64,000 bases of DNA. Source: Solirubrobacterales bacterium (GTDB lineage: Bacteria > Actinomycetota > Thermoleophilia > Solirubrobacterales > 70-9). Below, in pieces: positions 17,409 to 33,863 of the stretch (position 1 is its first letter; every line of letters begins with the position of its first letter). The notes under the pieces are model-generated. The model was not told the origin of the DNA and did no database searches. It worked only from the letters and a program-made list of their open reading frames with translations. Made by a program: the position numbers and the translations under genes. The stretch spans positions 1 to 64,000 of the forward strand of contig SHVA01000011.1 of NCBI GenBank assembly GCA_009691195.1. The letters run 5' to 3'.

Positions 17409-19733
17409 ATGGCCCTCTCCAACATCTCGGGCTTCCCCAGGATCGGCCGAGACCGGGAGCTCAAGTTCGCCACGGAAAGCTATTGGCGGGGCGAGAGCTC
17501 GGCCGATGAGCTTGCCTTTGCCGGCCGCGAGATCCGGCTCGCGAACTGGAAGCTGATGCAGGAGCGGGGGATCGACCTGATCCCCTCCAACGACTTCTCC
17601 TACTACGACCAGGTCCTCGACGCCGTCGCCCTCTTCGGCGCCGTTCCCGACCGATACGGCCACGAGGTGGGCGACGTGGGCCTCGACCTCTACTTCGCGA
17701 TGGCGCGCGGAAGGCAGGCTGACGGCGTTGACGTCACCGCGATGGAGATGACCAAGTGGTTCGACACCAACTACCACTACATCGTCCCCGAGCTCGGCCC
17801 CGACACGCGCTTCTCGCTGTCTGCGAGCAAGCCGTTCGACGAGCACGCCGAGGCGATGGAGGAGCTCGGGATCGACACGGTACCGGTGCTGATCGGGCCC
17901 GTCAGCTTCCTGCTCCTGGCCAAGCCCGCCGAAGGTGTCGATGAGGGCTTCGACCGCCTCTCGCTGCTGGAGCCGCTGCTCGAGGCCTACGGCGAGGTGC
18001 TCGAGCGCCTCGCCGAGCAGGGCGCCGACTGGGTGCAGCTCGACGAGCCCTGCTTCGTCGAGGACCGCTCCGAGCACGAGCTGGATGCGCTGCGCCTCGC
18101 CTACGAGGAGCTGGCCAGGGTGCGTGAGCGGACCCGGATCTGCGTCAAGACCTACTTCGACCACAGCGGAGACGCCTACGGCGTGCTCCGCAACCTCCCC
18201 GTCGAGGGCGTCGGGCTCGACTTCGTCCGGGGCCTTCACAACGTCGAGCTGATCGCCAAGCAGGGCGGCCTCGAGGACCGCTGGCTGTTCGCCGGCATCG
18301 TCGACGGCCGCAACGTCTGGATCAGCGACCTCGAGCACAGCCTCGATCTGCTCGAGGGGCTGAGCACGCGCACCTCCCAGCTCGTCGTCTCGAGCTCCTG
18401 CTCGCTCATGCACAGCCCGCTCGACCTCGACGCCGAGCCGGCGGGCGTGGACGCCGACCTCGACGACGAGATGCGCTCCTGGATGTCCTTCGCCGTGCAG
18501 AAGGTGGGGGAGGTGGCGACGCTGGCGCTGGGCCTCGCCGGCGGGCGCCCGGCGATAGCCGAGCAGCTCGACGCCAACGACCGCGCGCTCGAGGACCGGC
18601 GCAACTCGCACCGCACCGCCAACCCCGAGATCCGCTCGCGGGTCGCGGCGCTCAGCGATGACGACGCCCGCCGTGAGGGCGGGTTCGCGGCGCGGCGCGA
18701 CGCCCAGCGCGAGCGGCTCGGCCTGCCGCCCTTCCCCTCGACCACGATCGGCTCCTATCCCCAGACCGACGAGATCCGCGGTGCCCGCCGCCGCCTCCGC
18801 GAGGGTGAGATCGACCGGCCCGCCTACACGGGGCTGATGGAGGCCGAGATCGAGCGGGTCGTCCGCTTCCAGGAGGAGATCGGCCTCGACGTGCTCGTCC
18901 ACGGCGAGCCCGAGCGCAACGACATGGTCCAGTACTTCGGCGAGCAGATGGAGGGCTACGTCTTCACCGAGAGCGCCTGGGTGCAGTCCTACGGCTCTCG
19001 CTGCGTGCGGCCGCCGATCATCTTCGGCGACGTACGCCGGCCCTCGCAGATGACCGTCGAGTGGACCACCTACGCCCAGTCGCTGACCGAGCGGCCGATG
19101 AAGGGGATGCTCACCGGCCCGGTGACGATGCTGCAGTGGTCCTTCGTGCGCGACGACCAGCCGCGCGCCGAAACCTGCCGCCAGCTCGCCCTGGCGATTC
19201 GCGACGAGGTCATCGACCTCGAGGCCGCCGGGGTGCCGATCATCCAGGTCGACGAGCCGGCGATCCGCGAGGGGCTGCCGCTTCGCCGCGACCGCTGGGA
19301 GGAGTACCTGGGCTGGGCGGTGGAGTGCTTCCGGATCTCGACCTCGGGAGTCCGCGATGAGACCCAGGTCCAGACCCACATGTGTTACTCGGACTTCGGC
19401 GAGATCATGGAGCAGATCGTCGCCATGGACGCCGACGTGCTCCTGATCGAGGCCGCGCGCTCGCGGATGGAGTTGCTCCACGATTGGGAGCGCAGCGGCT
19501 ACGAGCGTGACATCGGCCCGGGCGTCTATGACATCCACTCACCGCGGGTCCCTACGGCCGAGGAGATGGTGGAGCTGCTTCGGGCGGCGGCGGAGGTCCT
19601 CGAGCCCGAGCAGATCTGGGTCAACCCCGACTGCGGCCTCAAGACCCGCGCCTGGCCCGAGACCGAGGCGGCGCTGCGGAACATGGTCAACGCGGCCAAG
19701 CAGGCCCGCAATGAACTCCTCCGGGCGGGCTGA
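17409..19733 (+). CDS. metE: Cobalamin-independent methionine synthase MetE
   Basis: This 774-residue enzyme transfers a methyl group from 5-methyl-THF-(Glu)n directly to homocysteine. The N-terminal half begins with NISGFPRIGRDRELKFA; the C-terminal catalytic half begins near FPSTTIGSYPQTDEIR (about residue 440). Zinc ligands are visible in THMCYSDFGEI (His and Cys about 657-659) and VNPDCGLKTR (Cys about 741). Length and motifs are normal, so the enzyme should be active. It is divergently paired with metH, giving the cell both B12-dependent and B12-free routes. There is no room upstream for a riboswitch, and the TAGCCT-N6-ATG arrangement predicts a leaderless transcript, so any B12 switch must be protein-based. 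Confidence 0.95.
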   Translation: MALSNISGFPRIGRDRELKFATESYWRGESSADELAFAGREIRLANWKLMQERGIDLIPSNDFSYYDQVLDAVALFGAVPDRYGHEVGDVGLDLYFAMARGRQADGVDVTAMEMTKWFDTNYHYIVPELGPDTRFSLSASKPFDEHAEAMEELGIDTVPVLIGPVSFLLLAKPAEGVDEGFDRLSLLEPLLEAYGEVLERLAEQGADWVQLDEPCFVEDRSEHELDALRLAYEELARVRERTRICVKTYFDHSGDAYGVLRNLPVEGVGLDFVRGLHNVELIAKQGGLEDRWLFAGIVDGRNVWISDLEHSLDLLEGLSTRTSQLVVSSSCSLMHSPLDLDAEPAGVDADLDDEMRSWMSFAVQKVGEVATLALGLAGGRPAIAEQLDANDRALEDRRNSHRTANPEIRSRVAALSDDDARREGGFAARRDAQRERLGLPPFPSTTIGSYPQTDEIRGARRRLREGEIDRPAYTGLMEAEIERVVRFQEEIGLDVLVHGEPERNDMVQYFGEQMEGYVFTESAWVQSYGSRCVRPPIIFGDVRRPSQMTVEWTTYAQSLTERPMKGMLTGPVTMLQWSFVRDDQPRAETCRQLALAIRDEVIDLEAAGVPIIQVDEPAIREGLPLRRDRWEEYLGWAVECFRISTSGVRDETQVQTHMCYSDFGEIMEQIVAMDADVLLIEAARSRMELLHDWERSGYERDIGPGVYDIHSPRVPTAEEMVELLRAAAEVLEPEQIWVNPDCGLKTRAWPETEAALRNMVNAAKQARNELLRAG

Positions 19734-20301: not shown

Positions 20302-21864
20302 CTAGCGTCCCAGCCGGCGCTTGAGGCCGCGGGCGTTGAAGAAGGTGGTGACGCGCCTCAGCGTCCTGCGGCGCTTCTCGGTGTAGGGGAAGTAGATCGG
20401 CTCGCGCTTCTGGTTGAAGCGGTTGATCACCAGCGACTCGGGGCGGACGAATTTCTTGATCCCGTACTCGCCGTGGCGGAAGCCGATGCCCGAGTCCTTC
20501 CAGCCGCCCATCGGCACGTCCGAGGCGAGGAAGTTGATCAGCACGTCGTTGACGCAGGCCGCGCCGGCCTCGAGCCGGCGGGCGACCTCGGTCGCCTCGC
20601 GGGTCTTGCCGAAGACGTAGCCCGTGAGGCCGTGGCGGCTGTCGTTGGCCATCCGCACCGCCTCGTCGGCGTCGCGGACCTTGATCACGGCCACGACGGG
20701 GCCGAAGGTCTCCTCCTTCACCACCTCCATCGAGTGGTCGGCGTCGGCGATCACCGTCGGTGGGTACCAGTCGCCGGGCCCGGGCCCTCGCTCGCCGCCG
20801 GTGAGCACCCGGGCGCCGCGCTCGCGCGCGTCGGCGACGTGCTTCTCGACGAGGTCGATCTGCGGCGGGAAGGTCATCGCTCCCACCTCGGACCCGTACT
20901 CGGCACCGTCGATGCCCTGGCGCAGCGTCCCCACCTCGTCGGTGAGGCGCTGGACGAACTCGTCGTAGATCGGCTCCTCGACATAGAGGCGCTCGACCGA
21001 CATGCAGACCTGGCCTGAGTTCTGGAAGGCGCCCCAGGTGGCGGCGTTGACGCTGCGCTCCATGTCGGCGGAGCGCAGGACGATCATCGGATCGTTGCCG
21101 CCCAGCTCGAGGCTGACGGGCGTGAGCCGCTCGGCGGCCTGGGCCATCACCTTCCTGCCGGTGCGGTCCGAGCCCGTGAACTGGACGAAGTCGACCTGGT
21201 CCACCAGGGCGGAGCCGGTCTCACCGCGGCCGTTGACGATCTCGAAGACGTCGGGGCCGCCGATCTCCTCCTTCCAGGCCAAGAGGATGCGGCCCAGCGC
21301 CAGCGGAGTGATCTCCGAGGGCTTGATCACGACCGCGCAGCCGGCCATCAGCGCCGGGATCGCGTCGCCGATGGAGAGGATCAGCGGGAAGTTCCAGGGG
21401 CTGATGATGCCGGCGACGGGGAAGGGCCGGTACTGGACGCGCAGCTTCTTCACCTTCATCAGCGGCGAGTGGGCGGGAACCTTCTCGTCGCCGATGAAGC
21501 GCTTGGCCCGGCGCCCGTAGAAGTTGATCAGGTCGGTGAGGTAGACCATCTCGCCGGCCGCCTCGGCGCGGACCTTGCCGGTCTCGGCCTGCATCAGGTC
21601 GGCGATCTCATCGGAGTGGTCGAGCATCCAGTCGCGCAGCTTGTCGAGCCAGCGGCGGCGGCCTTTGAATCCGAGGGCCTCCCATGCGGGCTGGTTGGCC
21701 CGCACCCCGGCCACGACCTCCGCGACGCGCTCGGGGCCGTCGAGGGGCAGGGTCGCGATCACCGAGTCGTCGGCAGGGTTGACGACCTCAAAGCTCTCGC
21801 CGGGTGCCCCGGCGCCGTTGGTGGTCGGCGCGGCGTGGGTGCTGCTGGTCTGCGTTGTCGCCAT
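20302..21864 (-). CDS. NAD(P)-dependent aldehyde dehydrogenase (succinate-semialdehyde type)
   Basis: This 520-residue ALDH-superfamily enzyme oxidises aldehydes to acids. Key motifs are ISPWNFPLILSIGDAIPAL (about 150-168, with the catalytic-site Asn), VSLELGGND carrying the general-base Glu (about 255), and NSGQVCMS with the nucleophilic Cys (about 289). The C-terminal half carries KEETFGPVVAVIKV. The last 40 residues are a basic extension. The ATG at 21864 is preferred because GAGGGG lies 6 nt ahead of it; an ATG two codons upstream overlaps that site. Substrate is not determined. It diverges from amt over a 254-nt region. Confidence 0.88.
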   Translation of the reverse strand: MATTQTSSTHAAPTTNGAGAPGESFEVVNPADDSVIATLPLDGPERVAEVVAGVRANQPAWEALGFKGRRRWLDKLRDWMLDHSDEIADLMQAETGKVRAEAAGEMVYLTDLINFYGRRAKRFIGDEKVPAHSPLMKVKKLRVQYRPFPVAGIISPWNFPLILSIGDAIPALMAGCAVVIKPSEITPLALGRILLAWKEEIGGPDVFEIVNGRGETGSALVDQVDFVQFTGSDRTGRKVMAQAAERLTPVSLELGGNDPMIVLRSADMERSVNAATWGAFQNSGQVCMSVERLYVEEPIYDEFVQRLTDEVGTLRQGIDGAEYGSEVGAMTFPPQIDLVEKHVADARERGARVLTGGERGPGPGDWYPPTVIADADHSMEVVKEETFGPVVAVIKVRDADEAVRMANDSRHGLTGYVFGKTREATEVARRLEAGAACVNDVLINFLASDVPMGGWKDSGIGFRHGEYGIKKFVRPESLVINRFNQKREPIYFPYTEKRRRTLRRVTTFFNARGLKRRLGR

Positions 21865-21909
21865 CTTCATCCCCTCGCTCGGATCTTCGTGACTGACGGC
21901 ACTTTATCG

Positions 21910-22118: not shown

Positions 22119-23682
22119 ATGAAACGACGGCATCTGGGGGTGGTGCCGCTTGCCTTGGTGGCGCTCTTCGTGCTTCCCGGCATCGCGTCCGCCGACTCGC
22201 TGGAGGCGTCGGGGAACGGTGTCCTGCCTGACTCAGTCGCGATCAACACCCTCTGGGTGATCTTCGCCGGCGCTCTGGTCATGTTCATGCAGGCAGGGTT
22301 CATGCTCCTCGAGATCGGCTTCTCGCGGGGCAAGAACGCCGGCACCGTGGTCGTCGAAGATCCTCGTGAACTTCTCGATTGCGGCGATCGCGTTCTACGT
22401 CTGCGGGTTCGCCTTCGCCTTCGGCGCCAACGGCAGCATCGGCCCGTTCCACGACGTGATCGGAAACACGGGGTTCTTTCTGCAGGACTACGGCGACCCG
22501 ACCACGGCGTTCCCCGTCATGGGACTGTCCAACGCCACGGTGGAGTCGAAGTGGTTCTTCCAGTTCGCCTTCTGCGCCGTGTCGCTGGCGATCGTCTGGG
22601 GCGCGACGCTGGAGCGGATCAAGTTCGGCGTCTACATCATCTACTCGATCGTGTTCGCCTCGCTGATCTATCCGATCGGCGCCCACTGGGTGTTCGGCGG
22701 CGGCTGGCTGCAGCTGAACGTCGGCATGCAGGACTTCGCCGGCTCGACCGCGGTCCACCTGATCGGCGCCACCGGTGGGCTCGCCGCCCTGCTGTTGCTC
22801 GGCGCCCGCAGGGGCAAGTTCGGCGGTGACGGCAAGCCACGCGCCATACCGGGGCATTCGATGCCCCTGTTCGGGCTCGGTGTGGTGATCCTCTGGCTGG
22901 GCTGGTTCGGGTTCAACCCCGGATCGACCCTGGGCGCGCTCGACGGGCGCTTCCCTGAGGTGCTGGTGATAACCCAGCTGGCGGCAGCGGCCGGCGTATT
23001 GGCGGCGGCGATCACGAGCAAGGTCACTCAGAAGACGATCGACATCGGCATGGTCGGAAACGGCGCAATCGCTGCCCTGGTAGCGATCACCGCTCCTTCG
23101 GGCTACGTCGAGATCTGGGCCGCCCCGATCATCGGGGCGGTTGCCGGCGTGCTCGTCGTGTACGCCGTGCTGGCGATCGACAAGCTGATCGACGACCCGG
23201 TCGGAGCGCTTTCCGCGCACGGCCTGGCCGGTATCTGGGGCACCTTGTCGTGCGGCTTGTTCACCGCGCCTCGCCTGGCCGAGTACAACGCATTCGGAGT
23301 CACGACAGGCTCGGGGAAGAGCGAGCATTTCCTCGGCGGGTTCGTCTATGCGAGCGGCCTCTTGGGCAAGGGCGCCAACGACATCGGCGGCTCCCTCAAC
23401 ACCGAGGCCTTCAAGCAGCTCGGCGCGCAGGCGCTGGGCGTCTCCGTCGCCTTTGCGTTCGTGTTCGCGGCCAGCTTCGCGACCTTCTGGACGATCAAGA
23501 AGGTCTATGGGCTTCGCGTCGATGAGGGCGAGGAGGACGCCGGGCTGGACATCTCAGAGCATGGGATGTACGGCTATCCGGAGCAGTTCATCCCGCAGCC
23601 GGAGTACCCGGGTGCGGCGAGCGGACCGCTTCCGGCCGGCAGGCCGGCCATTGCAACCGCAACCGCCGACACCAAGGCGTAA
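22119..23682 (+). pseudogene. amt: Ammonium transporter Amt, apparent one-base frameshift near 22354
   Basis: The frame from ATG 22119 (RBS AAGGAAA upstream) encodes a signal segment, ASADSLEASG and TM1 with GFMLLEIGFSRGKNAGTVV, then diverges. Removing one base near 22354 restores V-A-K-I-L-V-NFSIAAIAF and the remaining transporter, which stays open to the TAA at 23682. The second frame alone could start at GTG 22366, but it would lack TM1. Downstream sequence carries Amt motifs such as DFAGSTAVHLIGATGGL (the DFAG region), the pore-His-bearing HSMPLFGLGVVILWLGWFGFNPGST, and TGGLAALLLLGARRGK. Amt conducts ammonium into the cell and is gated by PII, whose gene follows 12 nt later. The lesion may be genuine or an assembly error. 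Confidence 0.82.
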
Positions 23683-23694
23683 GGGGGTGAACAA

Positions 23695-24063
23695 ATGAAG
23701 AAGATCGAAGCGTTCATCCGCCACGAGGCGTTTGAGCCGATCAGGACCGAGCTGCTCGAGCAGGGATTTCCATCCCTATCGATCAGCGAGGTCAAGGGCT
23801 CCGGTCGCCAGAAGGGGGTGGTGGAGACCTACCGCGGCTCGACCCTGACGGTCAACGTTCGGCCGAAGCTCAAGATCGAGTGCGTCGTCGAAGACAAGGA
23901 CAAGGGTCTCGTCGTCGAGACGATCCTCAAGCATGCCCGCACGGGCGAGGTCGGCGACGGCAAGATCTTCGTCATCCCCGTCGAGGAGGCGATCCGGATC
24001 CGCACCGGGGAAGGCGGTGAGCCGGTTCTCCAGACCCACGAGGAGTCCGAGGGCCCCAAGTAG
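23695..24063 (+). CDS. PII nitrogen-regulatory protein lacking Tyr51
   Basis: This 122-residue PII protein binds ATP/ADP and 2-oxoglutarate and docks on Amt. It starts MKKIEAFIRHEAFEPIR and carries the T-loop GSGRQKGVVETYRG and the C-terminal signature VGDGKIFVIPVEEAIRIRTGE. Aligned by eye with E. coli GlnB, Tyr46 is kept (ETYRG), but the position of Tyr51, the nucleotidylylation site, is Leu (RGSTLTV). Covalent uridylylation or adenylylation at that site is therefore not possible. The ATG at 23695 follows GGGGGTGA, a strong RBS, 12 nt after amt, so the two form an operon. Confidence 0.93.
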   Translation: MKKIEAFIRHEAFEPIRTELLEQGFPSLSISEVKGSGRQKGVVETYRGSTLTVNVRPKLKIECVVEDKDKGLVVETILKHARTGEVGDGKIFVIPVEEAIRIRTGEGGEPVLQTHEESEGPK

Positions 24064-24122: not shown

Positions 24123-25358
24123 CTAGCGGCGCTTGCGCTTGGCCACCAGGCGCCAGACCTGGCCCTTCTGGGAGAGGACGTAGACGTGGCCCGCCCGGTC
24201 CTCGGCGAAGGAGGTCAGGTAGGGGACCTCGAAGCGGAGCTTGCGCTGCTTGACGGCCTTGTTGGGCAGGGGGCGGAAGGAGAAGATCCGCCCCGTGCAG
24301 AAGTCGCCGAAGATGTAGCGGCCGATGATCTCGCGGCCGAAGATCCGCGAAAGGCTCGGGTCGCGGACGACGTAGCCGCCGGTGACCGAGCAGCCGGGCC
24401 CGTGGGGGTAGGCGAGGATCGGCTCGACCGTCCGCTTCTTGGGAACCCCGCCCCTGTAGGCGGCGAAGCCCTCGTAGGCCGACCAGCCGAAGTTGGCGCC
24501 GGCGCCGGCGCCGGGCGGGACGTAGTCGATCTCCTCGAAGCGGTCCTGCCCGACGTCGCCGATCGACAGCGCCCCCGTGGCGCGGTCGAAGGAGAAGCGC
24601 CAGGGGTTCCGCAGCCCGTAGGCGTAGATCTCGTCGAGCCCGCGGCGGCCGACGAAAGGGTTGTCCTTGGGGACGGTGTAGGGCCTGCGCCCGTGCTTGG
24701 CGGGATCGATCCGGAGGATCTTTCCGCGCGGGTTCTTCAGGTTCTGCGCCGAGTCAAAGGGGTCTCCCGAGGGCCCGCCGTCACCCGAGCCGACGTAGAG
24801 ATGGCCGTCCGGCCCAAAGACAAGCAGGCCCCCGTGGTGCTTGGGGGTGGGCTCGGGGATGATGAGCACGTTGCGGGCACTGCTTCCGCTGGCCCGCACC
24901 TCGCTCTTGGGGCTGCGGCGGTATTCCACCACCCGCAGGTCGTCGTGGTTGTCGGTGAAGGCGACGTAGAAGCGGCCGGATTCGGAGTAGTCGGGCGCGA
25001 AGGTGAGCGAGAGCAGGCCCTCCTCACCACCCTTGCCGTCGTCCTTGACCCGGTCGCGAATGTCGAGGAAGGGCTCGGGGAGCGTCCGCCCGCGCTCGAC
25101 TACCCGGACCTTGCCCGGCTTCTCCACGACGAAGAGGGCCTCACCCTGGGGCGGCTGGGTCAGGTGGACGGGTTGGTTGAAGTTCCCGATCTTCTCGAGG
25201 GCGAGGAACTTGGGCCCGAGGCGCTGCTCGTCGCGATGGGAGATGCCGATGATCGCGGTCACGGCGGCGAGGATCGCCGCGAGCGTCGTCTCGATCTGGC
25301 GGCGGGTGAAGATGGTTCGCATGGACGGGGCATGCCGCCGGCGGGGTCGCCGCGGCAC
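24123..25358 (-). CDS. PQQ-dependent sugar dehydrogenase-like beta-propeller (copy A)
   Basis: This 411-residue protein has a basic N-terminus, a hydrophobic segment (about 20-38) acting as signal peptide or anchor, and a GSDH/HHIP-type six-bladed propeller. Motifs: HHGGLLVFGPDGHLYVGSGD, GLRNPWRFSFDRATG, GANFGW, and the Cys pair in GCSVTGGYVVRD and FGDFCTG, probably a disulfide. The GTG at 25358 is chosen because TAACCT lies 7 nt before it; ATG 25322 is an alternative. It is the last of five consecutive paralogues, separated from copy B by 23 nt, and probably has its own promoter as well. Soluble relatives oxidise sugars with PQQ, but cofactor use is not shown here. Confidence 0.82.
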   Translation of the reverse strand: MPRRPRRRHAPSMRTIFTRRQIETTLAAILAAVTAIIGISHRDEQRLGPKFLALEKIGNFNQPVHLTQPPQGEALFVVEKPGKVRVVERGRTLPEPFLDIRDRVKDDGKGGEEGLLSLTFAPDYSESGRFYVAFTDNHDDLRVVEYRRSPKSEVRASGSSARNVLIIPEPTPKHHGGLLVFGPDGHLYVGSGDGGPSGDPFDSAQNLKNPRGKILRIDPAKHGRRPYTVPKDNPFVGRRGLDEIYAYGLRNPWRFSFDRATGALSIGDVGQDRFEEIDYVPPGAGAGANFGWSAYEGFAAYRGGVPKKRTVEPILAYPHGPGCSVTGGYVVRDPSLSRIFGREIIGRYIFGDFCTGRIFSFRPLPNKAVKQRKLRFEVPYLTSFAEDRAGHVYVLSQKGQVWRLVAKRKRR

Positions 25359-25365
25359 CCGCGGC

Positions 25366-25371
25366 AGGTTA
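25366..25371 (-). promoter_or_regulatory. -10 box TAACCT before propeller copy A
   Basis: Reverse-strand TAACCT ends 7 nt before the GTG at 25358, the same hexamer and spacing as hemQ. It suggests copy A is also transcribed independently of the upstream copies. Confidence 0.5.
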
Positions 25372-25381
25372 GTGCCTGCGC

Positions 25382-26569
25382 CTAGCGCTTCCCGGGAACG
25401 ACCCGGAAGACCGGGCCGCTGAGCGAGGTCGCATACAGGGCGCCGCCGCGGCCCTCTCCGAAGGAGCTGAGCGAGCCGACCCGCAGGCCCGTCCCGCGGT
25501 CGTGCTTGGCGCGGCCGAGCGCCGGCACGAAGCTGCGCAGCTTGCCGGTGCAGTAGTCGCCGTAGAGATAGCGTCCGCGCAGGCTCTTCAGCGAGCGGTC
25601 AGCGACGACGTAGCCGCCGATCACGGTGCACCCACGCGAGTGCGGGTAGGCGAGCACGGGCTGGTCGTGGCGCGATGGCGCCGGCGGGATCGCGCCGTCG
25701 TAGTGCGAGAAGCCCTCGAAGTCGTTCCAGCCGAAGTTTGCGCCCCTGGCGGCAGCGACCGTCTCGTAGTCAACCTCCTCGAAGGCGTCCTGACCGACGT
25801 CGCCGATCGCGATTCGGGGCCGGCTGGGCTTTGTAGTGAGGTCGAAGGAGAAGCGGAAGGGGTTGCGCAGCCCGATCGAGTAGATCTCGTCGCGGCCCGG
25901 GTCGCCGACGAAGGGGTTGCTCGCTGGGACCGTGTAGGGCCGGCCGCCGCTCTCCCGGGGGTCTATCCGGATCAGCTTGCCGAGCAGGTTGTCGGTCCTC
26001 TGGGCGCTGTTGTCGGCGTCGCCGGCGCCCCCGCCGTCGCCCGCCCCCGCGAACAGGTAGCCGCCCGGGCCGAACTGGAGCTGGCCGCCGTTGTGGTTGG
26101 ACTCGTCGGGGTGGGGGATCGTGATCACGACCCGGCGGGTCTTGCGCTTGGCACGGTTGGGATTGCCGGCCGAGCGGCGGAACTCGTCGATCTCGATGCT
26201 GCCCTCGTTGTTGACGAAGTAGGCGTAGAAGCGCCCCGAGCTGCCGTAGTCGGGCGGGAACGCGATCGAGAGCAGCCCCTGCTCGCCTCCGAAACGCACG
26301 AGCCGGCGGATGTCCAGGAAGGGCCTGCCGAGCCTTCGCCCCCTGAGGACGAGCCGCACCCGGCCCGCCTGCTCGACCACGAACAGCCCCCTGGAGCCAG
26401 GCGCGGAGTCCACGTAAACCGGGCTGCGGAAGCGGCCGATCGATTTCAGCGTTGCGCCGCCCTTGCCGTTGCCCGCTGCCACCGCGCTCGGGTCCCAGCG
26501 GCCGCCTGCGACCAGCAACACGGCGCCGGCGAACGCCAGGCAGGCTGCTGTTGTGCGGGCGCGCCTCAC
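25382..26569 (-). CDS. PQQ-dependent sugar dehydrogenase-like beta-propeller (copy B)
   Basis: This 395-residue secreted propeller starts at a GTG (26569) that overlaps the TGA of copy C as GTGA, so its translation is coupled. A signal peptide (VRRARTTAACLAFAGAVLL) precedes the propeller. Family motifs: NHNGGQLQFGPGGYLFAGAG with the His that in soluble glucose dehydrogenase is the catalytic base, GLRNPFRFSFDL with the conserved Arg, GANFGWNDFEG, and the paired cysteines in GCTVIGGYVVAD and YGDYCTG. A longer in-frame extension upstream lies inside copy C and was rejected. Confidence 0.83.
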   Translation of the reverse strand: MRRARTTAACLAFAGAVLLVAGGRWDPSAVAAGNGKGGATLKSIGRFRSPVYVDSAPGSRGLFVVEQAGRVRLVLRGRRLGRPFLDIRRLVRFGGEQGLLSIAFPPDYGSSGRFYAYFVNNEGSIEIDEFRRSAGNPNRAKRKTRRVVITIPHPDESNHNGGQLQFGPGGYLFAGAGDGGGAGDADNSAQRTDNLLGKLIRIDPRESGGRPYTVPASNPFVGDPGRDEIYSIGLRNPFRFSFDLTTKPSRPRIAIGDVGQDAFEEVDYETVAAARGANFGWNDFEGFSHYDGAIPPAPSRHDQPVLAYPHSRGCTVIGGYVVADRSLKSLRGRYLYGDYCTGKLRSFVPALGRAKHDRGTGLRVGSLSSFGEGRGGALYATSLSGPVFRVVPGKR

Positions 26570-27759
26570 TTGGGATCCAGGCGCCGGAGGCTGCCGTTCA
26601 GAGTGGTGAGCATCAACCTGCCCTTGGCGTCCTCGCCGAAGGACGAGACGCTCTGCAGGCTCCTCACCCCGAGCGGCCGATCGTCGCTGGCGCTGCCCTG
26701 GGAGGGGATCAGGCTCCGGATCTGGCCTGAGCAGAAGTCCGCGTACAGGTAGCGCCCCAAGAGCGAGGGAAGGCGCTTGTCGCGGGCCACGTAGCCGCCG
26801 CTGATCGCGCAGGTCCCGTGGTGCGGGTAAGCGAGGATCGGCGCCACGGCGCCCGGCGCCGCCAGATCGGGATCTATCAGCGCCTTGCCCTCGAAGCGCG
26901 GCCAGCCGAAGTTGGAGCCGCGGGCCTTGCCGCGCTTGCGGAAGTTGACCTCCTCGCGGGCGATCGGGGCGTCCGAGCCGACGTCGCCGATCGCGATCGC
27001 GCCCTTGAGGCGGTCGAAGCTGAAGCGCCACGGGTTGCGAAAGCCGAGCGCGTAGATCTCGTCGCGCCCCGGGCCCTGGGCGAAGGGATTGCCGGTCGGG
27101 ACGGTGTAGGGCTCGCTCCCGCGCCGGCGGGGATCGATCCGCAGGATCTTGCCCAGGAGGCTGTCGTGGCTCTGGGCCTGCTCGGACTCAGCGCCGTCGC
27201 CGACGCTCACGTAGAGGAGGCCGTCGGGGCCGAACTGGAGCGCTCCGGCGTTGTGGTTGGGGAAGTCGTCGCGGTGGGGGATCTCCAGCACCGCCCTCGG
27301 CTCGCCGATCGCGCGCAGCCCCTTGGGGTCGGTCCGGATCTCCGCCACCAGGTTGTCGGTGTCGAGTTGGTTGAAGTAGACGTAGGCGAGGTGGTTGCGC
27401 TCGAAGTGCGGGTGGAAGGCGATCGAGAGCAGACCCTGCTCGCTGTTGCCCGACTCGACCGAGTCGCTGATGTCGAATAGGGGCGTTTCCCGCGTGGCGC
27501 CGTCACGGATGACCAGGACGCGGCCTCCTCGCTCGACCACGTAGAGGTTGCGCCTCAGCGATGGAGCCGCCGCCACGTGGACCGGCTGGTCGAGCCCGGC
27601 GGCCAATTTCGTCAGCTTGACGCCGCCGGTGCCCGGCTTCTTGGCGCCGCCCTGCGTCTCACGGGCGGCGGCGGTCGCGGCGAGCGTCAGGGCGCAGCTG
27701 CCGAGCAGCACCGCGGCCGCGAGGACGGCGCGGCCCGCCCGGGGCTCGCGGGCCGTCAA
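26566..27759 (-). CDS. PQQ-dependent sugar dehydrogenase-like beta-propeller (copy C)
   Basis: This 397-residue propeller starts at TTG 27759, overlapping the TGA of copy D as TTGA. The signal peptide is LTAREPRAGRAVLAAAVLLG. Motifs: NHNAGALQFGPDGLLYVSVG, GFRNPWRFSFDRLKG, GSNFGWPRFEGKAL, and TCAISGGYVARD with YADFCSG. It differs from its neighbours at the otherwise conserved GDGG (GDGA here) and at GG after the His (NHNAG), so its ligand site may be altered. Function is inferred from family only. Confidence 0.82.
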   Translation of the reverse strand: MTAREPRAGRAVLAAAVLLGSCALTLAATAAARETQGGAKKPGTGGVKLTKLAAGLDQPVHVAAAPSLRRNLYVVERGGRVLVIRDGATRETPLFDISDSVESGNSEQGLLSIAFHPHFERNHLAYVYFNQLDTDNLVAEIRTDPKGLRAIGEPRAVLEIPHRDDFPNHNAGALQFGPDGLLYVSVGDGAESEQAQSHDSLLGKILRIDPRRRGSEPYTVPTGNPFAQGPGRDEIYALGFRNPWRFSFDRLKGAIAIGDVGSDAPIAREEVNFRKRGKARGSNFGWPRFEGKALIDPDLAAPGAVAPILAYPHHGTCAISGGYVARDKRLPSLLGRYLYADFCSGQIRSLIPSQGSASDDRPLGVRSLQSVSSFGEDAKGRLMLTTLNGSLRRLDPK

Positions 27760-28937
27760 GGCGCTGGATCGAGGCGGTAGAGGGGCCCCGCCAGCGAGGC
27801 GACGAAGATCCGCCCGCCCTTGCCCTGGCCGAAGGAGCCCGGCGAGTCGACGAAGGTCCCCGGCCCTACCTCCTGGTCGTTTACGGCGCCGCTCGCCTTC
27901 GGGATCAGCGAGCGCACGATGCCGTCGCAGAGGTCGCTGTAGACGTAGCGGCCGTAGAGGCTCTCGAGCCGCTTGTCGCGAACCACGTAGCCGCCGATGA
28001 TCGCGCATCGGGAACTGTGGTCGTAGTCGTGGATCGGGAGGATCGCGCCGGGTGCCGAGATGTCGCCGTCGCGCAGCAACGAGCCCTCAAAGCGCGGCCA
28101 GCCGAAGTTGGCGCCGCGCCCCTTGCCCCGCTTGCGGAAGTCGACCTCCTCACGCTGGCCCTCGCCGACGTCGCCGATCAGCAGCGCCCCGGTGAGGCGG
28201 TCGAAGGAGAAGCGGTAGGGGTTGCGCAGGCCCAGCGAGTAGACCTCGGCCCGTCCGGGCGCCGGCCCGGCGAAGGGGTTGGACCTCGGCGAGGTGTAGG
28301 GCTTGGAGCCGCCGCCCTTGCGCCGGCTCTTGCGCGGCTCGATCCGCAGGACCTTGCCGCGCAGGTTGTCGCGGTCCTGCGCCGCCTCGGGGGTGGAGCC
28401 GCCGTCTCCCGAGGCGATATAGAGCAGCCCGTCGGGCCCGAACTCGATCTGGCCGCCGTTGTGGTTCGCGGCGTCGTCGGGATGGGGGATCTCGATCACA
28501 TCGCGGATTGAGCCGGGCGCGACGACGGTGGGCTTCTTGGCGCTGCGACGCAGCTCGACGACGACATTGTCACCGTCGTTCTGGGTGTAGTAGGCATACA
28601 GCAGGCGGTTCCTGTCGTAGCCCGGATGGAAGGCGATCGAGAGCAGGCCGCGCTCGCCACCGTCGTCCACCAGGGAGCTGAGGTCGACGAACGGCCTCGC
28701 GAGCGTCTCGCCCTTCCGCATCACCATCACCCGGCCCTGCTTCTCGACCACGAACAGAAGCCCCTTCGCGCCCGGCGCGCTGGTTGCGAATATGGGCTGG
28801 TTGAAGTCGTCGAGCTCGGTCAGCGTGACGCCGTCGTCCCCGTCGCCGACGGGTGGCGTTCCGGCCGCCGGCACGGCGACGATCAGCGCGGTGAGCATCG
28901 TCAGGGGGAGCAGGAGTCTCTTCATCGCGGGGTTCAT
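27756..28937 (-). CDS. PQQ-dependent sugar dehydrogenase-like beta-propeller (copy D)
   Basis: This 393-residue propeller starts at ATG 28937, 7 nt after a strong GGAGGT, the only copy with a clear Shine-Dalgarno. The signal peptide is MKRLLLPLTMLTALIVAV with a cleavage site near AAGT. Motifs: NHNGGQIEFGPDGLLYIASG, GLRNPYRFSFDRLTG, GANFGWPRFEG, and RCAIIGGYVVRD with YSDLCDG. It carries a Lys/Arg-rich loop (EPRKSRRKGGGSKPY) absent from the others. Copy C overlaps its stop; copy E ends 30 nt upstream. Confidence 0.83.
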   Translation of the reverse strand: MNPAMKRLLLPLTMLTALIVAVPAAGTPPVGDGDDGVTLTELDDFNQPIFATSAPGAKGLLFVVEKQGRVMVMRKGETLARPFVDLSSLVDDGGERGLLSIAFHPGYDRNRLLYAYYTQNDGDNVVVELRRSAKKPTVVAPGSIRDVIEIPHPDDAANHNGGQIEFGPDGLLYIASGDGGSTPEAAQDRDNLRGKVLRIEPRKSRRKGGGSKPYTSPRSNPFAGPAPGRAEVYSLGLRNPYRFSFDRLTGALLIGDVGEGQREEVDFRKRGKGRGANFGWPRFEGSLLRDGDISAPGAILPIHDYDHSSRCAIIGGYVVRDKRLESLYGRYVYSDLCDGIVRSLIPKASGAVNDQEVGPGTFVDSPGSFGQGKGGRIFVASLAGPLYRLDPAP

Positions 28938-28967
28938 CAGGAACACCTCCGAGGTCGCATCGGATCG

Positions 28968-30170
28968 CTATCCCGGCACGATCCGGTAGACCGGGCCATC
29001 GAGCGAGGCAACATAGAGCCTGCCCCCGGCCCCCTCGCCGAAGGAGCTCAGCTGAGGCACCTCCAGCCCCAGCGCGTGCTCGCCCCCGGGGAGGCCGGGG
29101 ACGAAGCTGCGAAGCTCTCCAGAGCAGAAGTCGCCGTAGAGGTATCGGCCGTCAAGAGAGGTCAGCTCCGGGTCCCGGACCACATAGCCGCCGGTCACCG
29201 AGCAACCCTCCTCGTGCGAGTAGGCCAGGGCAGGCGCGATCGCGCCGGGCGCCGTCTGGTCCGGGTTGAAGCGCTGGTCGGCCTCGAGGGCCGACCAGCC
29301 GAAGTTGGCCCCCGCGGCCCTCGCCGTGGGCACGATGTCGATCTCCTCGAAATCACTCTGGCCGACGTCGCCGATCGCCAGGTCGCCAGTCCCGTGGTCA
29401 AAGCTGAAGCGCCAGGGGTTGCGCAGACCGTAGGCGTAGAGTTCGGGGCGGGCGCCCTTGCGGCCTGCGAACGGGTTGTCGCTCGGGACCGAGTAGGGGC
29501 GGCCGCCCGCCGCCCGGGGGTCGATTCGCAGGATCTTGCCGAGCAGGCTCGAGAGGTCCTGGGCGTTTCGCTCGGGGTCTCCGATCCCGCCACCGTCGCC
29601 CGTACCGATGTAGAGCAGGCCGTCGGGACCGAACTGGAGCAGCCCGCCGTTGTGGTTGGAGGCGAAGTCGTCCATCACGAGCACCTCTCGCTCGCTCGCC
29701 GGGTCGGCGCTCTCGCCCGCGGGAGCCTCGAACTCGGCCACCCGCTGGTTCTGGTCGGAGTCGGTGAAGTAGGCGTAGACGAGGCCCGACTCCTCGTGGT
29801 CGGGGGGGAAGGCGATCGAGAGCAGCCCCTGCTCGCCGCCGGCGGTCACCCGGTCGCTGATGTCGAGGAACGGCTCACTCAGCGTGCGGCCGTCGCGGAT
29901 GATTCGAACGGTGCCGCCCTGCTCGACCACGTACAGATCCTCGCTTCCCGGCCGCTGGGTGACGTAGAGAGGCGCCTCGAAGTCGCCCAGCTCCTGAAGC
30001 CTGACGCCACCCACGCCCGCGCCGGCCCCCTTGGCCGCTTTCGCGGGTCCAGCGGCCGTCCTCGCCACCGTCGCGGGCTCGTCTTCCCCTCCGCCGCATC
30101 CGGCGCCGAGCAGGGCCGCGCCGGCGCAGAGCGCGACGAGAGTCACCCTCCATGGCCGCAGATCCCTCAC
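28968..30170 (-). CDS. Lipoprotein PQQ-dependent sugar dehydrogenase-like beta-propeller (copy E)
   Basis: This 400-residue protein is the first of the five co-oriented propellers. Its N-terminus has a lipobox (ALLGAGC, Cys about residue 25), so the mature protein should be lipid-anchored to the outer face of the membrane, unlike its neighbours. Motifs: NHNGGLLQFGPDGLLYIGTG, GLRNPWRFSFDHGTG, GANFGW, and GCSVTGGYVVRD with YGDFCSG. The GTG at 30170 lies 8 nt after a TAGAGT box. Copy A is the closest relative by motif inspection. Confidence 0.84.
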   Translation of the reverse strand: MRDLRPWRVTLVALCAGAALLGAGCGGGEDEPATVARTAAGPAKAAKGAGAGVGGVRLQELGDFEAPLYVTQRPGSEDLYVVEQGGTVRIIRDGRTLSEPFLDISDRVTAGGEQGLLSIAFPPDHEESGLVYAYFTDSDQNQRVAEFEAPAGESADPASEREVLVMDDFASNHNGGLLQFGPDGLLYIGTGDGGGIGDPERNAQDLSSLLGKILRIDPRAAGGRPYSVPSDNPFAGRKGARPELYAYGLRNPWRFSFDHGTGDLAIGDVGQSDFEEIDIVPTARAAGANFGWSALEADQRFNPDQTAPGAIAPALAYSHEEGCSVTGGYVVRDPELTSLDGRYLYGDFCSGELRSFVPGLPGGEHALGLEVPQLSSFGEGAGGRLYVASLDGPVYRIVPG

Positions 30171-30226: not shown

Positions 30227-31078
30227 CTACGGAGAGGGCGAGACCTCGGTCTGCTGCTCGGTGCCGCCCGCCTGGCCGAGCACGCTGGACTTCTTGATCG
30301 GCACGACCTCGCCGCTCTCGGTCACGCGGGTCTGCGGCGGGATGTCGCTGATCCGGACCACGAACTGTCTCTCGGGGACGCTGCCGTCGCCGGTCAGGGC
30401 CACCGCCTTGCCGGTGAGCCCGGCGGCAATGCGGTAGTTGACCGTGTAGTCGCCCGCCTGCACGGTGGTCAGGCTGAAGACGACCACGCGGGTGTCGCCG
30501 GCCTTTAGGGGGCCGAAGCTGTAGGTGTTCGTGAGCGCGGTGGCCGCGCCCGCCGACGCGCCCTTGCCCGCAAGCTTGGGGTAGCCGCTCTCGAGGACCC
30601 AGACGGGGCGGGAGGGAGTCGCAAGCCCGGCCTGCTGATCGACGATCGAGAAGGAGCCGCTGGCGGTTCCGCCGACCTCGGAGTCGTCATCGCCGGAGGT
30701 GGTGTCCTCGGTCGTTCCCGATTGCTCGTCGGGCGTGTCCTCGGAGGAGCTGGTGTCGACGTCATTGACGCCGGCGTCCTCTCCGGCCTCCGAGGCCGAG
30801 GCCTGGGGCTCGGTGAAGATGGTCATCGCCAGGTCCGGGATCGTCTCGTCGCCGGTGTTCTTGACGCCTAGGCGCAGCTCGGAGGTCTCGGCGATGTTCT
30901 GCCCGCTGGGGAACTCGGCGGTGACGATCTCGACCGGGAAATCGCCATCGGGTTCGTTCGCATCCTGGCTCTCCCCGCCACCGCAGGCGGCGATCCCCAA
31001 AACTAAAAGGGAAGCGAGGGTCGCTCCAAACAGGGCGCGCGCTCGCAGGAGAGGGTATGTGGAGCCGCACTCCTCCAA
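30227..31078 (-). CDS. Lipoprotein with acidic low-complexity linker
   Basis: This protein of about 283 residues has a signal peptide ending in the lipobox VLGIAAC, then a Gly/Glu-rich tether. A beta-sandwich-like segment (VEIVTAEFPSGQNIAETSEL, LRLGVKNTGDETIPDLAM) resembles CARDB/DUF11-type folds. An extremely acidic Ser/Thr/Asp/Glu linker (about residues 95-130) and a second beta-rich domain (FSLTTVQAGDYTVNYRIAAG) follow. The family is not recognised. The TTG start at 31078 is chosen because TATGTT lies 9 nt upstream and the signal peptide begins soon after; other starts are possible. Position and orientation make it a candidate surface partner of the propellers. Confidence 0.6.
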   Translation of the reverse strand: MEECGSTYPLLRARALFGATLASLLVLGIAACGGGESQDANEPDGDFPVEIVTAEFPSGQNIAETSELRLGVKNTGDETIPDLAMTIFTEPQASASEAGEDAGVNDVDTSSSEDTPDEQSGTTEDTTSGDDDSEVGGTASGSFSIVDQQAGLATPSRPVWVLESGYPKLAGKGASAGAATALTNTYSFGPLKAGDTRVVVFSLTTVQAGDYTVNYRIAAGLTGKAVALTGDGSVPERQFVVRISDIPPQTRVTESGEVVPIKKSSVLGQAGGTEQQTEVSPSP

Positions 31079-31226
31079 GGCGGGCGCAACATACACGACC
31101 CCGAAGCATCCCCGCAAGCGGCCTCCCCCCGCCGGCGGTTGTGCGGGCCCGTCGTGCGGGGCCGGTGGCGAGACGCTGGTCGATCAAATAACCTGTTCCG
31201 TGAGTCGCGTCACAGACGCCTGGCCC

Positions 31227-31261: not shown

Positions 31262-32068
31262 ATGGTCAGATCCGTAGCGGACAGGGCGTTCCTGCCGGCC
31301 AAGTCGCTTTTCGAGCAGGTCGGCGACATGATGATCCTGACCGCCAAGACGATCGTGTCGGCGGTCAAGCCCCCGTACCCCTACGGCGGTGAGTTCATCT
31401 CGCAGTTCCTGTTCGCGCTCCAGCTCTGCTGGTTCCCGATGATGATCTCGACCCTCGCCTTCGGCTTCGGCGCGCCGGGGCTGCAGGCGGCCAACTTCCT
31501 CTCGTTGTTCGGAGCGCTCGACCGCCTCGGGGGCTTCTTCATCCTCGCCTCGATCCGTGAGTTCGCACCCTTCGTCACCGCGGTCGTTGTCGCCGGCGTT
31601 GCCGGCACCGCGATCACCGCCGACCTCGGCGCAAGGAAGATCCGCGAGGAGCTCGACGCGCTCCAGGTTCTGGGCGTGGACCCGATCAAGAACCTCGTCG
31701 TGCCCCGCTTCCTGGCCCTGATGATCATCACCGGGCTGATGGACATCTACGCACTGATCTTCGGGATCATCGGCGGCATCGGCGCGGAGTTGCTCTACCA
31801 CGAGCCGCTCGGCGGCTTCTTCGCGACGCTCTTCAACAATGCATCCGTCGTCGACCTCTGGGGGTCGGTGCTGAAGACGACCCTGTTCGGGGCGATCATC
31901 GCAATCGTCTGCTCCTACAAGGGGATGACTGCGTCCGGAGGCGCCGAGGGCGTGGGCAGAGCCGTGAACGAAGCGGTGGTTATCGCCTTCATGGGCGTCT
32001 TCGCGTTCAACTACGTCTTCACCCAGACACTGCTCGCGACGCATCCTGATCTGCAGGTGATCAAGTAG
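31262..32068 (+). CDS. MlaE/YrbE family ABC permease (first copy)
   Basis: This 268-residue integral membrane protein of the MlaE (YrbE) family forms the membrane core of Mce/Mla lipid transporters. Characteristic blocks are LASIREFAPFVTAVVVAG, AGTAITADLGARKIREELDAL and LQVLGVDPIKNLVVPRF, the last carrying the EExDAL coupling helix. It has 5-6 hydrophobic segments. Start ATG 31262 follows a strong RBS GGAGGAG. It is followed without a gap by a second permease, matching the YrbEA/YrbEB pairing of actinobacterial mce loci. Confidence 0.92.
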   Translation: MVRSVADRAFLPAKSLFEQVGDMMILTAKTIVSAVKPPYPYGGEFISQFLFALQLCWFPMMISTLAFGFGAPGLQAANFLSLFGALDRLGGFFILASIREFAPFVTAVVVAGVAGTAITADLGARKIREELDALQVLGVDPIKNLVVPRFLALMIITGLMDIYALIFGIIGGIGAELLYHEPLGGFFATLFNNASVVDLWGSVLKTTLFGAIIAIVCSYKGMTASGGAEGVGRAVNEAVVIAFMGVFAFNYVFTQTLLATHPDLQVIK

Positions 32069-32868
32069 TGGGCGGCGGATGGCTCGCGGTCCCGCAGGGC
32101 TGGCTCAACTCGATCGGAGAGATCTTCGGGTTCTGCACCCGGGTCATGGGCCTGGTCTTCAGCGGGCGGGTTTTCCAGTTCTTCGGCGAGGCACTGCGCC
32201 AGACCGGCATCCTGATCCTCGGCTCGACCATCGTGATCTGGGGCCTTGTCTTCATCCTCGGTCTCCAGTGCGGAATCGAGGGCGCGTACTTCAACCGCTC
32301 GGTCGGCTCACCGTCATACGCGGGCGTCTTCGCCGCCTGGTGCGATCTGCGAGAGGTGGTGCCCTACGCGTTCGGCTACATGCTGGCGGCCAAGGTGGGC
32401 ACGGGAATCGTCGCCGAGATGGGCGCGATGCGGATCTCGGACGAGATCGACGCGCTCGAGGTGATGGGGGTGCCGCCGGTCACCTTCCTCGCGGCCACCC
32501 GCCTGCTGGCCGCCTGGATCGCATTCCCCTTCATGTACCTCGCCGCGGTCGGGATCGGCTTTTTCGCAAGCTGGCTGGCGGTCGTCGAGCAGATCGGCGA
32601 CGTTTCCTCCGGCGGCTACTTCCTGATCTTCTGGATGTTCCAGAATCCCCCCGACCTCTTATTCAGCCTGATCAAGGGCATGACGATGGCGACTGTCATC
32701 GTGCTGGTCGGCTGCTACTACGGCTACACGGCCGCGGGCGGTCCCGTGGGCGTCGGCACGGCGACTGCGAAGTCGATGGTGCTCAATATCGTCATGGTGC
32801 ACATGATCGGCATGATGGGCACGCTGGTCTTCTGGGGAGCTAATCCAAGAGCCCCAATAGGTGGCTAA
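32068..32868 (+). CDS. MlaE/YrbE family ABC permease (second copy)
   Basis: This 266-residue MlaE-type permease starts at GTG 32068, sharing one base with the TAG of the first copy (TAGTG). Motifs: KVGTGIVAEMGAMRISDEID, ALEVMGVPPVTFLAATRLLA and YYGYTAAGGPVGVGTATAKS. With the first copy it should form the heterodimeric membrane channel energised by the ATPase encoded 38 nt downstream. Confidence 0.92.
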   Translation: MGGGWLAVPQGWLNSIGEIFGFCTRVMGLVFSGRVFQFFGEALRQTGILILGSTIVIWGLVFILGLQCGIEGAYFNRSVGSPSYAGVFAAWCDLREVVPYAFGYMLAAKVGTGIVAEMGAMRISDEIDALEVMGVPPVTFLAATRLLAAWIAFPFMYLAAVGIGFFASWLAVVEQIGDVSSGGYFLIFWMFQNPPDLLFSLIKGMTMATVIVLVGCYYGYTAAGGPVGVGTATAKSMVLNIVMVHMIGMMGTLVFWGANPRAPIGG

Positions 32869-32906
32869 GGGCGGCAGGGCCGTCCGACCGAGAAAGGTGA
32901 GGCAAG

Positions 32907-33863
32907 TTGGCTGAGCGCAGGAGCAGTTCGAATAGATCGTCGTCCAAGAGCTCGAAGTCCACCAGCTCCCGCTCGAAGGCGAGCGGGCTGAAGTCGCAGG
33001 GCTTGGGCCAGGAGGACCTCTCGGGGCGCAACTACCTGATCCCCGGTGTGAACGCCCAGGACCCGGATCCCTACAAGTGGCATACCGGCGCCAAGCGCGA
33101 CCACGGCGGCGAGGATGCGATCGAGATCATCGACCTGGTCAAGCAGTTCGGCCGGACCCGGATCCTCAACGGCATCAACCTCGGCCTGCCCAACGACATG
33201 ATCTCGATGGTGCTCGGGCCGTCGGGGACCGGCAAGAGCGTGCTGATCAAGCACATCGTCGGGCTGCTCTATCCCGACGCCGGCGACGTGCTCGTCCATG
33301 GCGAGTCGATCCCGATGATGACCGACGACGAGCTGTTCGAGACGCGCAAGAAGTTCGGCCTGCTGTTCCAGGACGGCGCCCTGTTCGGCTCGATGAACGT
33401 CTACGACAACACCGCGTTCCCGCTCCGCCAGCACACCGACAAGGGCGAGGACGAGATCGAGAGCATCTGCATGCGCCGCCTTCGCGAGGTCGGGCTTGTG
33501 GAGGCGATGTACAAGATGCCCAACGAGCTCTCAGGGGGGATGCGCAAGCGCGCCGGGTTTGCCCGGGCGCTCGTGCTCGACCCGGCGATCGTCATGTTCG
33601 ATGAGCCCGATTCAGGACTCGACCCGGTCCGCACGGCGTTGCTGTGCGAGCTGATCCGCGAGATCCACGAGGAGAACGGCGGCTGTTACCTGGTGATCAG
33701 CCACGACCTCGGCACCGCGCGGCGGATCGCCGACTTCATCGCCGTCCTCTGGAAGGGGCGGATCGTGGAGAGCGGGCCGTCCCAGGAGCTGTTCGACTCA
33801 CGCAACCAATTCGTCAACCAGTTCCTCAACGCCGATGTGAAGGGCCCGCTCGCGATGGACTGA
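32907..33863 (+). CDS. MlaF/MceG-type ABC transporter ATPase
   Basis: This 318-residue ATPase has Walker A GPSGTGKSVLIK (about residues 105-116), the signature LSGGMRKRAGFARAL and Walker B IVMFDEPDSGLDP. The switch His lies in LVISHDLGTA. It carries an unusual 70-residue N-terminal extension rich in Ser, Lys and Arg. TTG start 32907 follows GGTGAGG, and no better start lies closer to the domain. In mycobacteria the equivalent MceG is encoded away from mce loci; here it sits with its permeases as in Gram-negative mla operons. Confidence 0.9.
   Translation: MAERRSSSNRSSSKSSKSTSSRSKASGLKSQGLGQEDLSGRNYLIPGVNAQDPDPYKWHTGAKRDHGGEDAIEIIDLVKQFGRTRILNGINLGLPNDMISMVLGPSGTGKSVLIKHIVGLLYPDAGDVLVHGESIPMMTDDELFETRKKFGLLFQDGALFGSMNVYDNTAFPLRQHTDKGEDEIESICMRRLREVGLVEAMYKMPNELSGGMRKRAGFARALVLDPAIVMFDEPDSGLDPVRTALLCELIREIHEENGGCYLVISHDLGTARRIADFIAVLWKGRIVESGPSQELFDSRNQFVNQFLNADVKGPLAMD

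What the first reader, a model, noticed from the sequence alone, without database searches (positions are those of the whole stretch)
24123..30170. Five consecutive paralogous PQQ-sugar-dehydrogenase-like propellers
Five genes of 393-411 codons on one strand, with 4-nt overlaps (E-D gap 30 nt, D/C and C/B overlapping, B-A 23 nt), each encode an exported GSDH/HHIP-type propeller. All keep the paired cysteines around GGYV and the Asp/Cys before the strand end, and GLRNP with its Arg. They vary at the substrate side: copy C has NHNAG and GDGA, copy A HHGG, copy D a basic loop. One copy (E) is lipid-anchored while the others have cleavable signals or an anchor. Keeping five divergent copies in one operon suggests specialised substrates or a multi-subunit surface assembly, not a recent amplification.
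Basis: partly seen in the sequence, partly recalled or inferred. Interest (0 to 1): 0.75.

Follow-up and report, generated by a model that had tools for sequence, protein, structure and literature searches.

The report
Five-gene operon of surface propeller proteins
A bacterium of the order Solirubrobacterales carries five old, different copies of one exported ring-shaped protein in a single operon; related genomes keep one to four copies at the same place, and the proteins look like sugar-oxidising enzymes that have lost the usual grip on the cofactor PQQ.

Summary
The five genes are real. All are full-length PF07995 (GSDH) propellers on the minus strand (24123-30170), exported, 44-54% identical, with 4-nt overlaps D/C and C/B. 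They are not a recent amplification: forcing the five into one clade is rejected (p 2e-64). Position is heritable. Copy E belongs to a 'first gene' clade, A to a 'last gene' clade, and B, C and D to a 'middle' clade; only C and D are sisters. Relatives in the family hold 1-4 copies at the same site, behind an order-wide lipoprotein divergent from an Mce operon. Five is the maximum among 50 family genomes. Loci inspected from other families of the order have no propeller there. The first propeller is lipid-anchored in 39 of 42 loci, later ones in about 6 of 39, and two relatives fuse copies 2 and 3: hints of one anchored member plus secreted partners. 'PQQ dehydrogenase' needs qualifying. Catalytic His-Asp-Arg-Asn is kept, but the Arg-x-Arg that holds PQQ carboxylates in canonical Asd/sGDH is absent (found in 1 of 144 homologues), a coupled cysteine pair lies at the corresponding rim, the nearest solved structures are HHIP, and pqqD/pqqE were not found. 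Most likely a surface oxidoreductase set of HHIP-type propellers; cofactor and substrates unproven.

The parts
28968..30170 (-). Propeller E, first of five; lipoprotein signal (LLGAGC), GSDH/HHIP-type six-bladed propeller; member of the 'first gene' clade
   Evidence: PF07995 E=4e-39; AF2 pLDDT 90, top PDB folds HHIP and Asd; tree
27756..28946 (-). Propeller D; Sec signal; basic loop RKSRRKGGGSKPY; sister of C
26566..27759 (-). Propeller C; TTG start overlapping the D stop (TTGA); NHNAG and GDGA variants; sister of D
25382..26569 (-). Propeller B; GTG start overlapping the C stop (GTGA); orthologue of the middle gene of G008/G016
24123..25358 (-). Propeller A, last of five; N-terminal anchor; KHHGG motif and SRIFGREIIGR insertion shared by the A clade
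30227..31117 (-). Probable first gene of the transcription unit: order-wide lipoprotein with Ig/CARDB-like beta sandwich (true start probably downstream of 31088); belongs to the Mce neighbourhood rather than to the propellers
31088..31096 (-). GTGTATGTT: conserved extended -10-like element upstream of the lipoprotein-propeller genes (consensus GTGGTATGTT in an alignment of 39 sequences)
31262..33863 (+). Divergent Mce-type ABC importer genes (two MlaE permeases, ATPase) that flank the site throughout the family; context, not part of the operon
20302..21870 (-). Aldehyde dehydrogenase marking the downstream border of the propeller site in most family genomes; AmtB-PII (22366-24063, +) lies between it and A in this genome; context, not part of the operon

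Best explanation
Shown: the locus is a run of five co-directional, overlapping or closely spaced genes for exported six-bladed propellers of the HHIP-like branch of PF07995, at a site kept across the family with 1-5 copies. Head, middle and tail copies descend from different ancient paralogues. The head copy is nearly always lipid-anchored, and every intact copy keeps the catalytic His-Asp-Arg-Asn. Inferred: these are cell-surface oxidoreductases of the aldose/alcohol dehydrogenase type. The His acts as base and the Arg/Asn bind a quinone-like cofactor, possibly scavenged PQQ held by a different, disulfide-braced rim. The lipid-anchored E holds the set at the membrane while A-D have diverged in substrate or partner. 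The identity part is about 0.95 likely, the enzymatic reading about 0.5, and a physical mixed assembly about 0.3.
For: PF07995 over the cut-off for all five. AF2 model pLDDT 90 with TM-score up to about 0.8 (target length) to PQQ-dependent Asd and about 0.65-0.7 to HHIP. H-D-R-N kept in 141 of 144 homologues across phyla; in CcPDH the equivalent His363, Arg430 and Asn431 lie at the O4/O5 side of PQQ (PMC6881789), whereas human HHIP has GLHDP there. Cys pair both present in 120, both absent in 21, discordant in 1. Lipobox at the first propeller 39/42 against 6/39 at later ones. Collinear orthologous clades and rejection of a five-copy clade. In-frame fusion of copies 2 and 3 in two relatives. 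Same site throughout the family.
Against: The canonical PQQ-carboxylate Arg-x-Arg is absent (the pattern matched 1 of 144 rows, against all six clear Asd proteins of the order). pqqD and pqqE were not found. No cytochrome or other electron acceptor was identified among the annotated neighbours. The Pfam match stops before the C-terminal part of the profile. Tandem paralogues can fuse by simple stop loss. Some family genomes carry no propeller at the site (G060, G063), so it is dispensable.
Confidence: 0.5

Rival explanations
1. Non-catalytic binding scaffold: like animal HHIP, the propellers have lost cofactor binding and act as surface binding proteins (glycan, lipid or protein ligands), five copies giving five specificities.
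For: Nearest solved structures by sequence and fold are HHIP; the C-terminal SFGED..G motif aligns with HHIP GFGED, not with Asd RxRxV; PQQ carboxylate residues absent; pqqD/pqqE not found.
Against: Catalytic His, Asp, Arg and Asn are invariant in nearly all 144 homologues, while HHIP itself has lost Arg/Asn.
Confidence: 0.3
2. Canonical PQQ-dependent aldose dehydrogenases using scavenged PQQ, specialised for five sugars.
For: Fold match to Asd and H-D-R-N kept; such enzymes can occur in organisms without PQQ synthesis (PMC4133262 abstract).
Against: Arg-x-Arg lost in the C-terminal part and the Lys377-equivalent position occupied by Cys; all are far below the TIGR03606 cut-off (24-48 bits against 434).
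Confidence: 0.15
3. Copy number is largely neutral turnover at a tandem locus: duplication and loss with little functional specialisation. This concerns the number of copies and can be true together with any of the functional readings.
For: Copy number varies from 0 to 5 among relatives; broken copies in G003.
Against: Collinear orthologues with fixed positions, conserved clade-specific motifs (A clade [KQ]HH[GS]G), intact active-site residues and position-dependent lipid anchoring.
Confidence: 0.15

Closest known systems
Human hedgehog-interacting protein (HHIP) propeller, PDB 2wg3/3ho5/7pgm
   Same: Best sequence and fold match; shares the GGxV and FGED..G signatures of the C-terminal blades
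   Different: HHIP has GLHDP where the bacterial proteins have GLRNP, and carries extra domains; it binds Hedgehog ligands and is not known as an enzyme (general knowledge)
Soluble aldose sugar dehydrogenase Asd (E. coli 2g8s, S. coelicolor 3das, P. aerophilum 3a9g)
   Same: Six-bladed propeller, catalytic His, Asp, Arg-Asn
   Different: Asd proteins of the same order have the C-terminal Arg-x-Arg; the window proteins lack it and have a Cys pair at the corresponding rim
AA12 pyranose dehydrogenase (Coprinopsis cinerea CcPDH)
   Same: Keeps His/Arg/Asn while altering part of the PQQ-carboxylate contacts (PMC6881789), so changed contacts are compatible with PQQ use
   Different: CcPDH keeps an Arg (Arg621) shared with bacterial enzymes; none seen at the corresponding place in the window proteins
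Tandem GSDH-like genes in other bacteria (e.g. Meiothermus contig L064, Solirubrobacter L065/L070, Coriobacteriales L071)
   Same: Two or more GSDH-like genes side by side
   Different: Fewer copies of this type; L064 alternates divergent subtypes

Membership tests
PF07995 (GSDH) superfamily | Score over Pfam gathering cut-off (25 bits) | tested here: met
   100-135 bits for all five
PF07995 (GSDH) superfamily | Six-bladed beta-propeller fold | tested here: met
   AF2 model of E, pLDDT 90; PDB matches HHIP, Asd, sGDH; the other four inferred from about 50% identity
PQQ-dependent aldose/glucose dehydrogenase (Asd/sGDH) | Catalytic His144, Asp163, Arg228-Asn229 | tested here: met
   H-D-R-N in all five and in 141/144 homologues
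PQQ-dependent aldose/glucose dehydrogenase (Asd/sGDH) | C-terminal Arg406-x-Arg408 binding PQQ carboxylates | tested here: not met
   Absent in all five and in 143/144 homologues; present in all six clear Asd proteins of the order
PQQ-dependent aldose/glucose dehydrogenase (Asd/sGDH) | PQQ synthesis genes in the genome (supporting, not required) | tested here: not met
   pqqD absent, pqqE only radical-SAM background as in all controls; the pqqC search was uninformative because no control rang; genome 93% complete
PQQ-dependent aldose/glucose dehydrogenase (Asd/sGDH) | PQQ/Ca2+-dependent dehydrogenase activity | not testable with these tools
   needs purified protein
NCBIfam TIGR03606 glucose/sorbosone PQQ dehydrogenase subfamily | Score over 434.55 bits | tested here: not met
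   24-48 bits
HHIP/HIPL-like propellers | Best sequence and fold match to HHIP rather than to Asd | tested here: met
   profile E 1e-46 for HHIP against 2e-29 for the best Asd-like entry; Foldseek ranks 1-14 are HHIP
Multi-subunit surface assembly | Physical association of the five products | not testable with these tools
   only indirect: one lipid-anchored head, fusions of copies 2 and 3

The most novel reading that the evidence does not exclude
A family-specific cell-surface complex in which one lipid-anchored and several secreted HHIP-type propellers, all with a quinoprotein-like catalytic centre but a disulfide-braced, non-canonical cofactor rim, form a hetero-oligomeric oxidoreductase with five different active sites.
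Probability: 0.15. Interest if true: 0.75.

Novelty: new variant of a known kind. Interest (0 to 1): 0.42.

Why it matters
It gives a clean natural series (0 to 5 copies at one conserved site) for asking what bacterial HHIP-type 'PQQ dehydrogenases' do. It also shows that many proteins annotated as PQQ-dependent sugar dehydrogenases lack the residues that hold PQQ carboxylates while keeping the catalytic centre, which makes that annotation a testable question.

Tried and rejected
Recent amplification or assembly artefact: rejected (44-54% identity; five-copy clade rejected). Lipoprotein 30227 as a dedicated partner of the propellers: rejected, because it occurs in 100 of 121 genomes of the order, and in the nine loci inspected from other families it is divergent from the Mce genes with no propeller beside it. 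Aldehyde dehydrogenase as a pathway partner: not supported; it also follows the lipoprotein in G060/G063 without propellers and is missing beside the propellers of G001 and G020. pqqC search: void, no control rang. A literature search joining PQQ-dependent sugar dehydrogenase and Thermoleophilia found nothing, and only one held paper joins HHIP, propeller, PQQ and glucose dehydrogenase. The first active-site column table was off by one column and was redone.

Full report
Observation. The five genes are present at the stated coordinates, on the minus strand, each a full-length PF07995 protein. Refined starts give E 28968-30170, D 27756-28946, C 26566-27759, B 25382-26569 and A 24123-25358. D/C overlap as TTGA and C/B as GTGA. 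Paralogue identities are 44-54%, so these are not near-identical copies. A sixth homologue lies on another contig (C12) and lacks both conserved cysteines.

Site and copy number. In the family, the propellers sit directly behind a fast-evolving lipoprotein (window 30227-31117) that is divergent from an Mce-type permease operon. On the far side, most genomes have an aldehyde dehydrogenase and then the methionine synthase MetH; in a few (G001, G020) MetH follows without the aldehyde dehydrogenase, and in G050 the aldehyde dehydrogenase lies between lipoprotein and propeller. An AmtB-PII pair at the downstream border is shared with G016 and G006. Among 50 family genomes, 45 have a match at E <= 1e-40; the largest tandem cluster per genome is 1 copy in 17, 2 in 17, 3 in 9, 4 in one (G042) and 5 only in the window genome. 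These are lower bounds, because many assemblies are fragmented. In the nine loci inspected from three other families of the order, the lipoprotein is divergent from the Mce genes but no propeller is beside it, so propellers at this site appear specific to the family. Two family genomes (G060, G063) have lipoprotein and aldehyde dehydrogenase with no propeller between them; small ORFs, some of helix-turn-helix type by eye, sit there.

Phylogeny. In a careful tree of 55 domains, E falls in a clade of first-position genes (98/85), A in a clade of last-position genes (100/100), and B, C and D in a clade of middle or single genes (99/96). B is sister to the middle gene of G008/G016 (100/99), and C and D are sisters (100/97). 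Forcing the five into one clade costs 239 log-likelihood units (AU p 2e-64). The larger quick tree gives the same groups. The operon therefore grew by old, nested duplications in which head and tail stayed in place, with C/D as the pair found only here (about 54% identity, still not recent).

Anchoring. With a relaxed lipobox rule (proline allowed), 39 of 42 first propellers match against 6 of 39 later ones (Fisher p 3e-13); with the strict PS51257-like rule it is 29/42 against 6/39 (p 1.4e-6). Rows are related, so the p-values overstate independence. Several of the six later matches, including window C, have the Cys inside a continuing hydrophobic stretch and are doubtful. Genes of the middle/B clade carry a lipobox where they are the first or only propeller and mostly lack it where they are internal, so position rather than lineage predicts anchoring. 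In G001 and G005 copies 2 and 3 are fused in frame, with short linkers and no internal signal peptide, while the same copies are separate in G012/G020.

Active site. Profile alignment of 144 homologues with Asd-type proteins from the same order (hhalign probability 100%, E 5e-50) maps sGDH His144, Asp163 and Arg228-Asn229 to H173, D192 and R250-N251 of E. They are intact in 141 of 144 rows, including all five window copies. The sGDH Arg406-x-Arg408 motif is present in all six clear Asd proteins of the order but matched in one of 144 rows (its column table was off by one and was replaced, but the motif counts do not depend on it). The assignment of sGDH residue numbers to these motifs rests on general knowledge of sGDH and on PMC6881789. 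The position of sGDH Lys377 is C349, and C323 lies in the strand aligned with the Thr348 region (my reading). The two cysteines are both present in 120 rows, both absent in 21 and discordant in one, as expected of a disulfide. The closest solved structures are HHIP by sequence profile and by fold, then Asd. HHIP itself has GLHDP in place of GLRNP. In CcPDH the homologous His363, Arg430 and Asn431 lie at the quinone side of PQQ, and the carboxylate contacts differ from sGDH (PMC6881789), so loss of one carboxylate clamp does not exclude PQQ.

Cofactor supply. pqqD was not found, and the only pqqE match is a sub-threshold radical-SAM hit of the kind seen in all controls. The pqqC search was uninformative. 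PQQ, if used, would have to be taken up.

Mechanism. Best reading: exported, partly lipid-anchored, quinoprotein-like oxidoreductases with a modified cofactor rim, the five copies diverged in substrate or partner. Fold, export signals, active-site retention and history are shown; cofactor, substrate, electron acceptor and assembly are inferred. The strongest rival is a non-catalytic HHIP-like binding role.

Verdict. Interest is moderate: a well-defined family-specific elaboration of a known fold, with a useful caution for PQQ-dehydrogenase annotation.

Noticed in passing
window 13813-17355 (-) and 17409-19733 (+): Cobalamin-dependent (MetH) and cobalamin-independent (MetE) methionine synthases lie back to back, 53 nt apart; a B12-responsive switch between them was not looked for.
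   Followed up: no
window 31088-31096 (-): A conserved extended -10-like element (GTGGTATGTT) upstream of the lipoprotein-propeller genes in an alignment of 39 sequences; a second conserved block lies near the Mce side.
   Followed up: partly
window 30227-31117 (-): Order-wide lipoprotein with Ig/CARDB-like fold, no Pfam match, divergent from the Mce genes in the loci inspected; a candidate Mce-linked lipoprotein.
   Followed up: partly
L088:6528-9107 and L115:3-1814: Natural in-frame fusions of two propellers (about 860 aa in G001; a partial one at a contig start in G005).
   Followed up: partly
L102:6573-10237 and L103:7632-8867: Propeller copies broken by frameshifts or split across frames in G003 and G024; decay or assembly error not resolved.
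   Followed up: no
L064:2028-7284: A Meiothermus contig with four adjacent GSDH-like genes alternating two divergent subtypes.
   Followed up: no
L012 and L013 (CAMCVN010000036.1, CAMDBT010000032.1): Records titled Bifidobacterium breve carry Solirubrobacter-like sequence; the titles look mislabelled.
   Followed up: no
L170:7982-9090 and L171:7935-8991: In G063 and G060 the propeller site holds small helix-turn-helix-like ORFs instead of propellers.
   Followed up: partly
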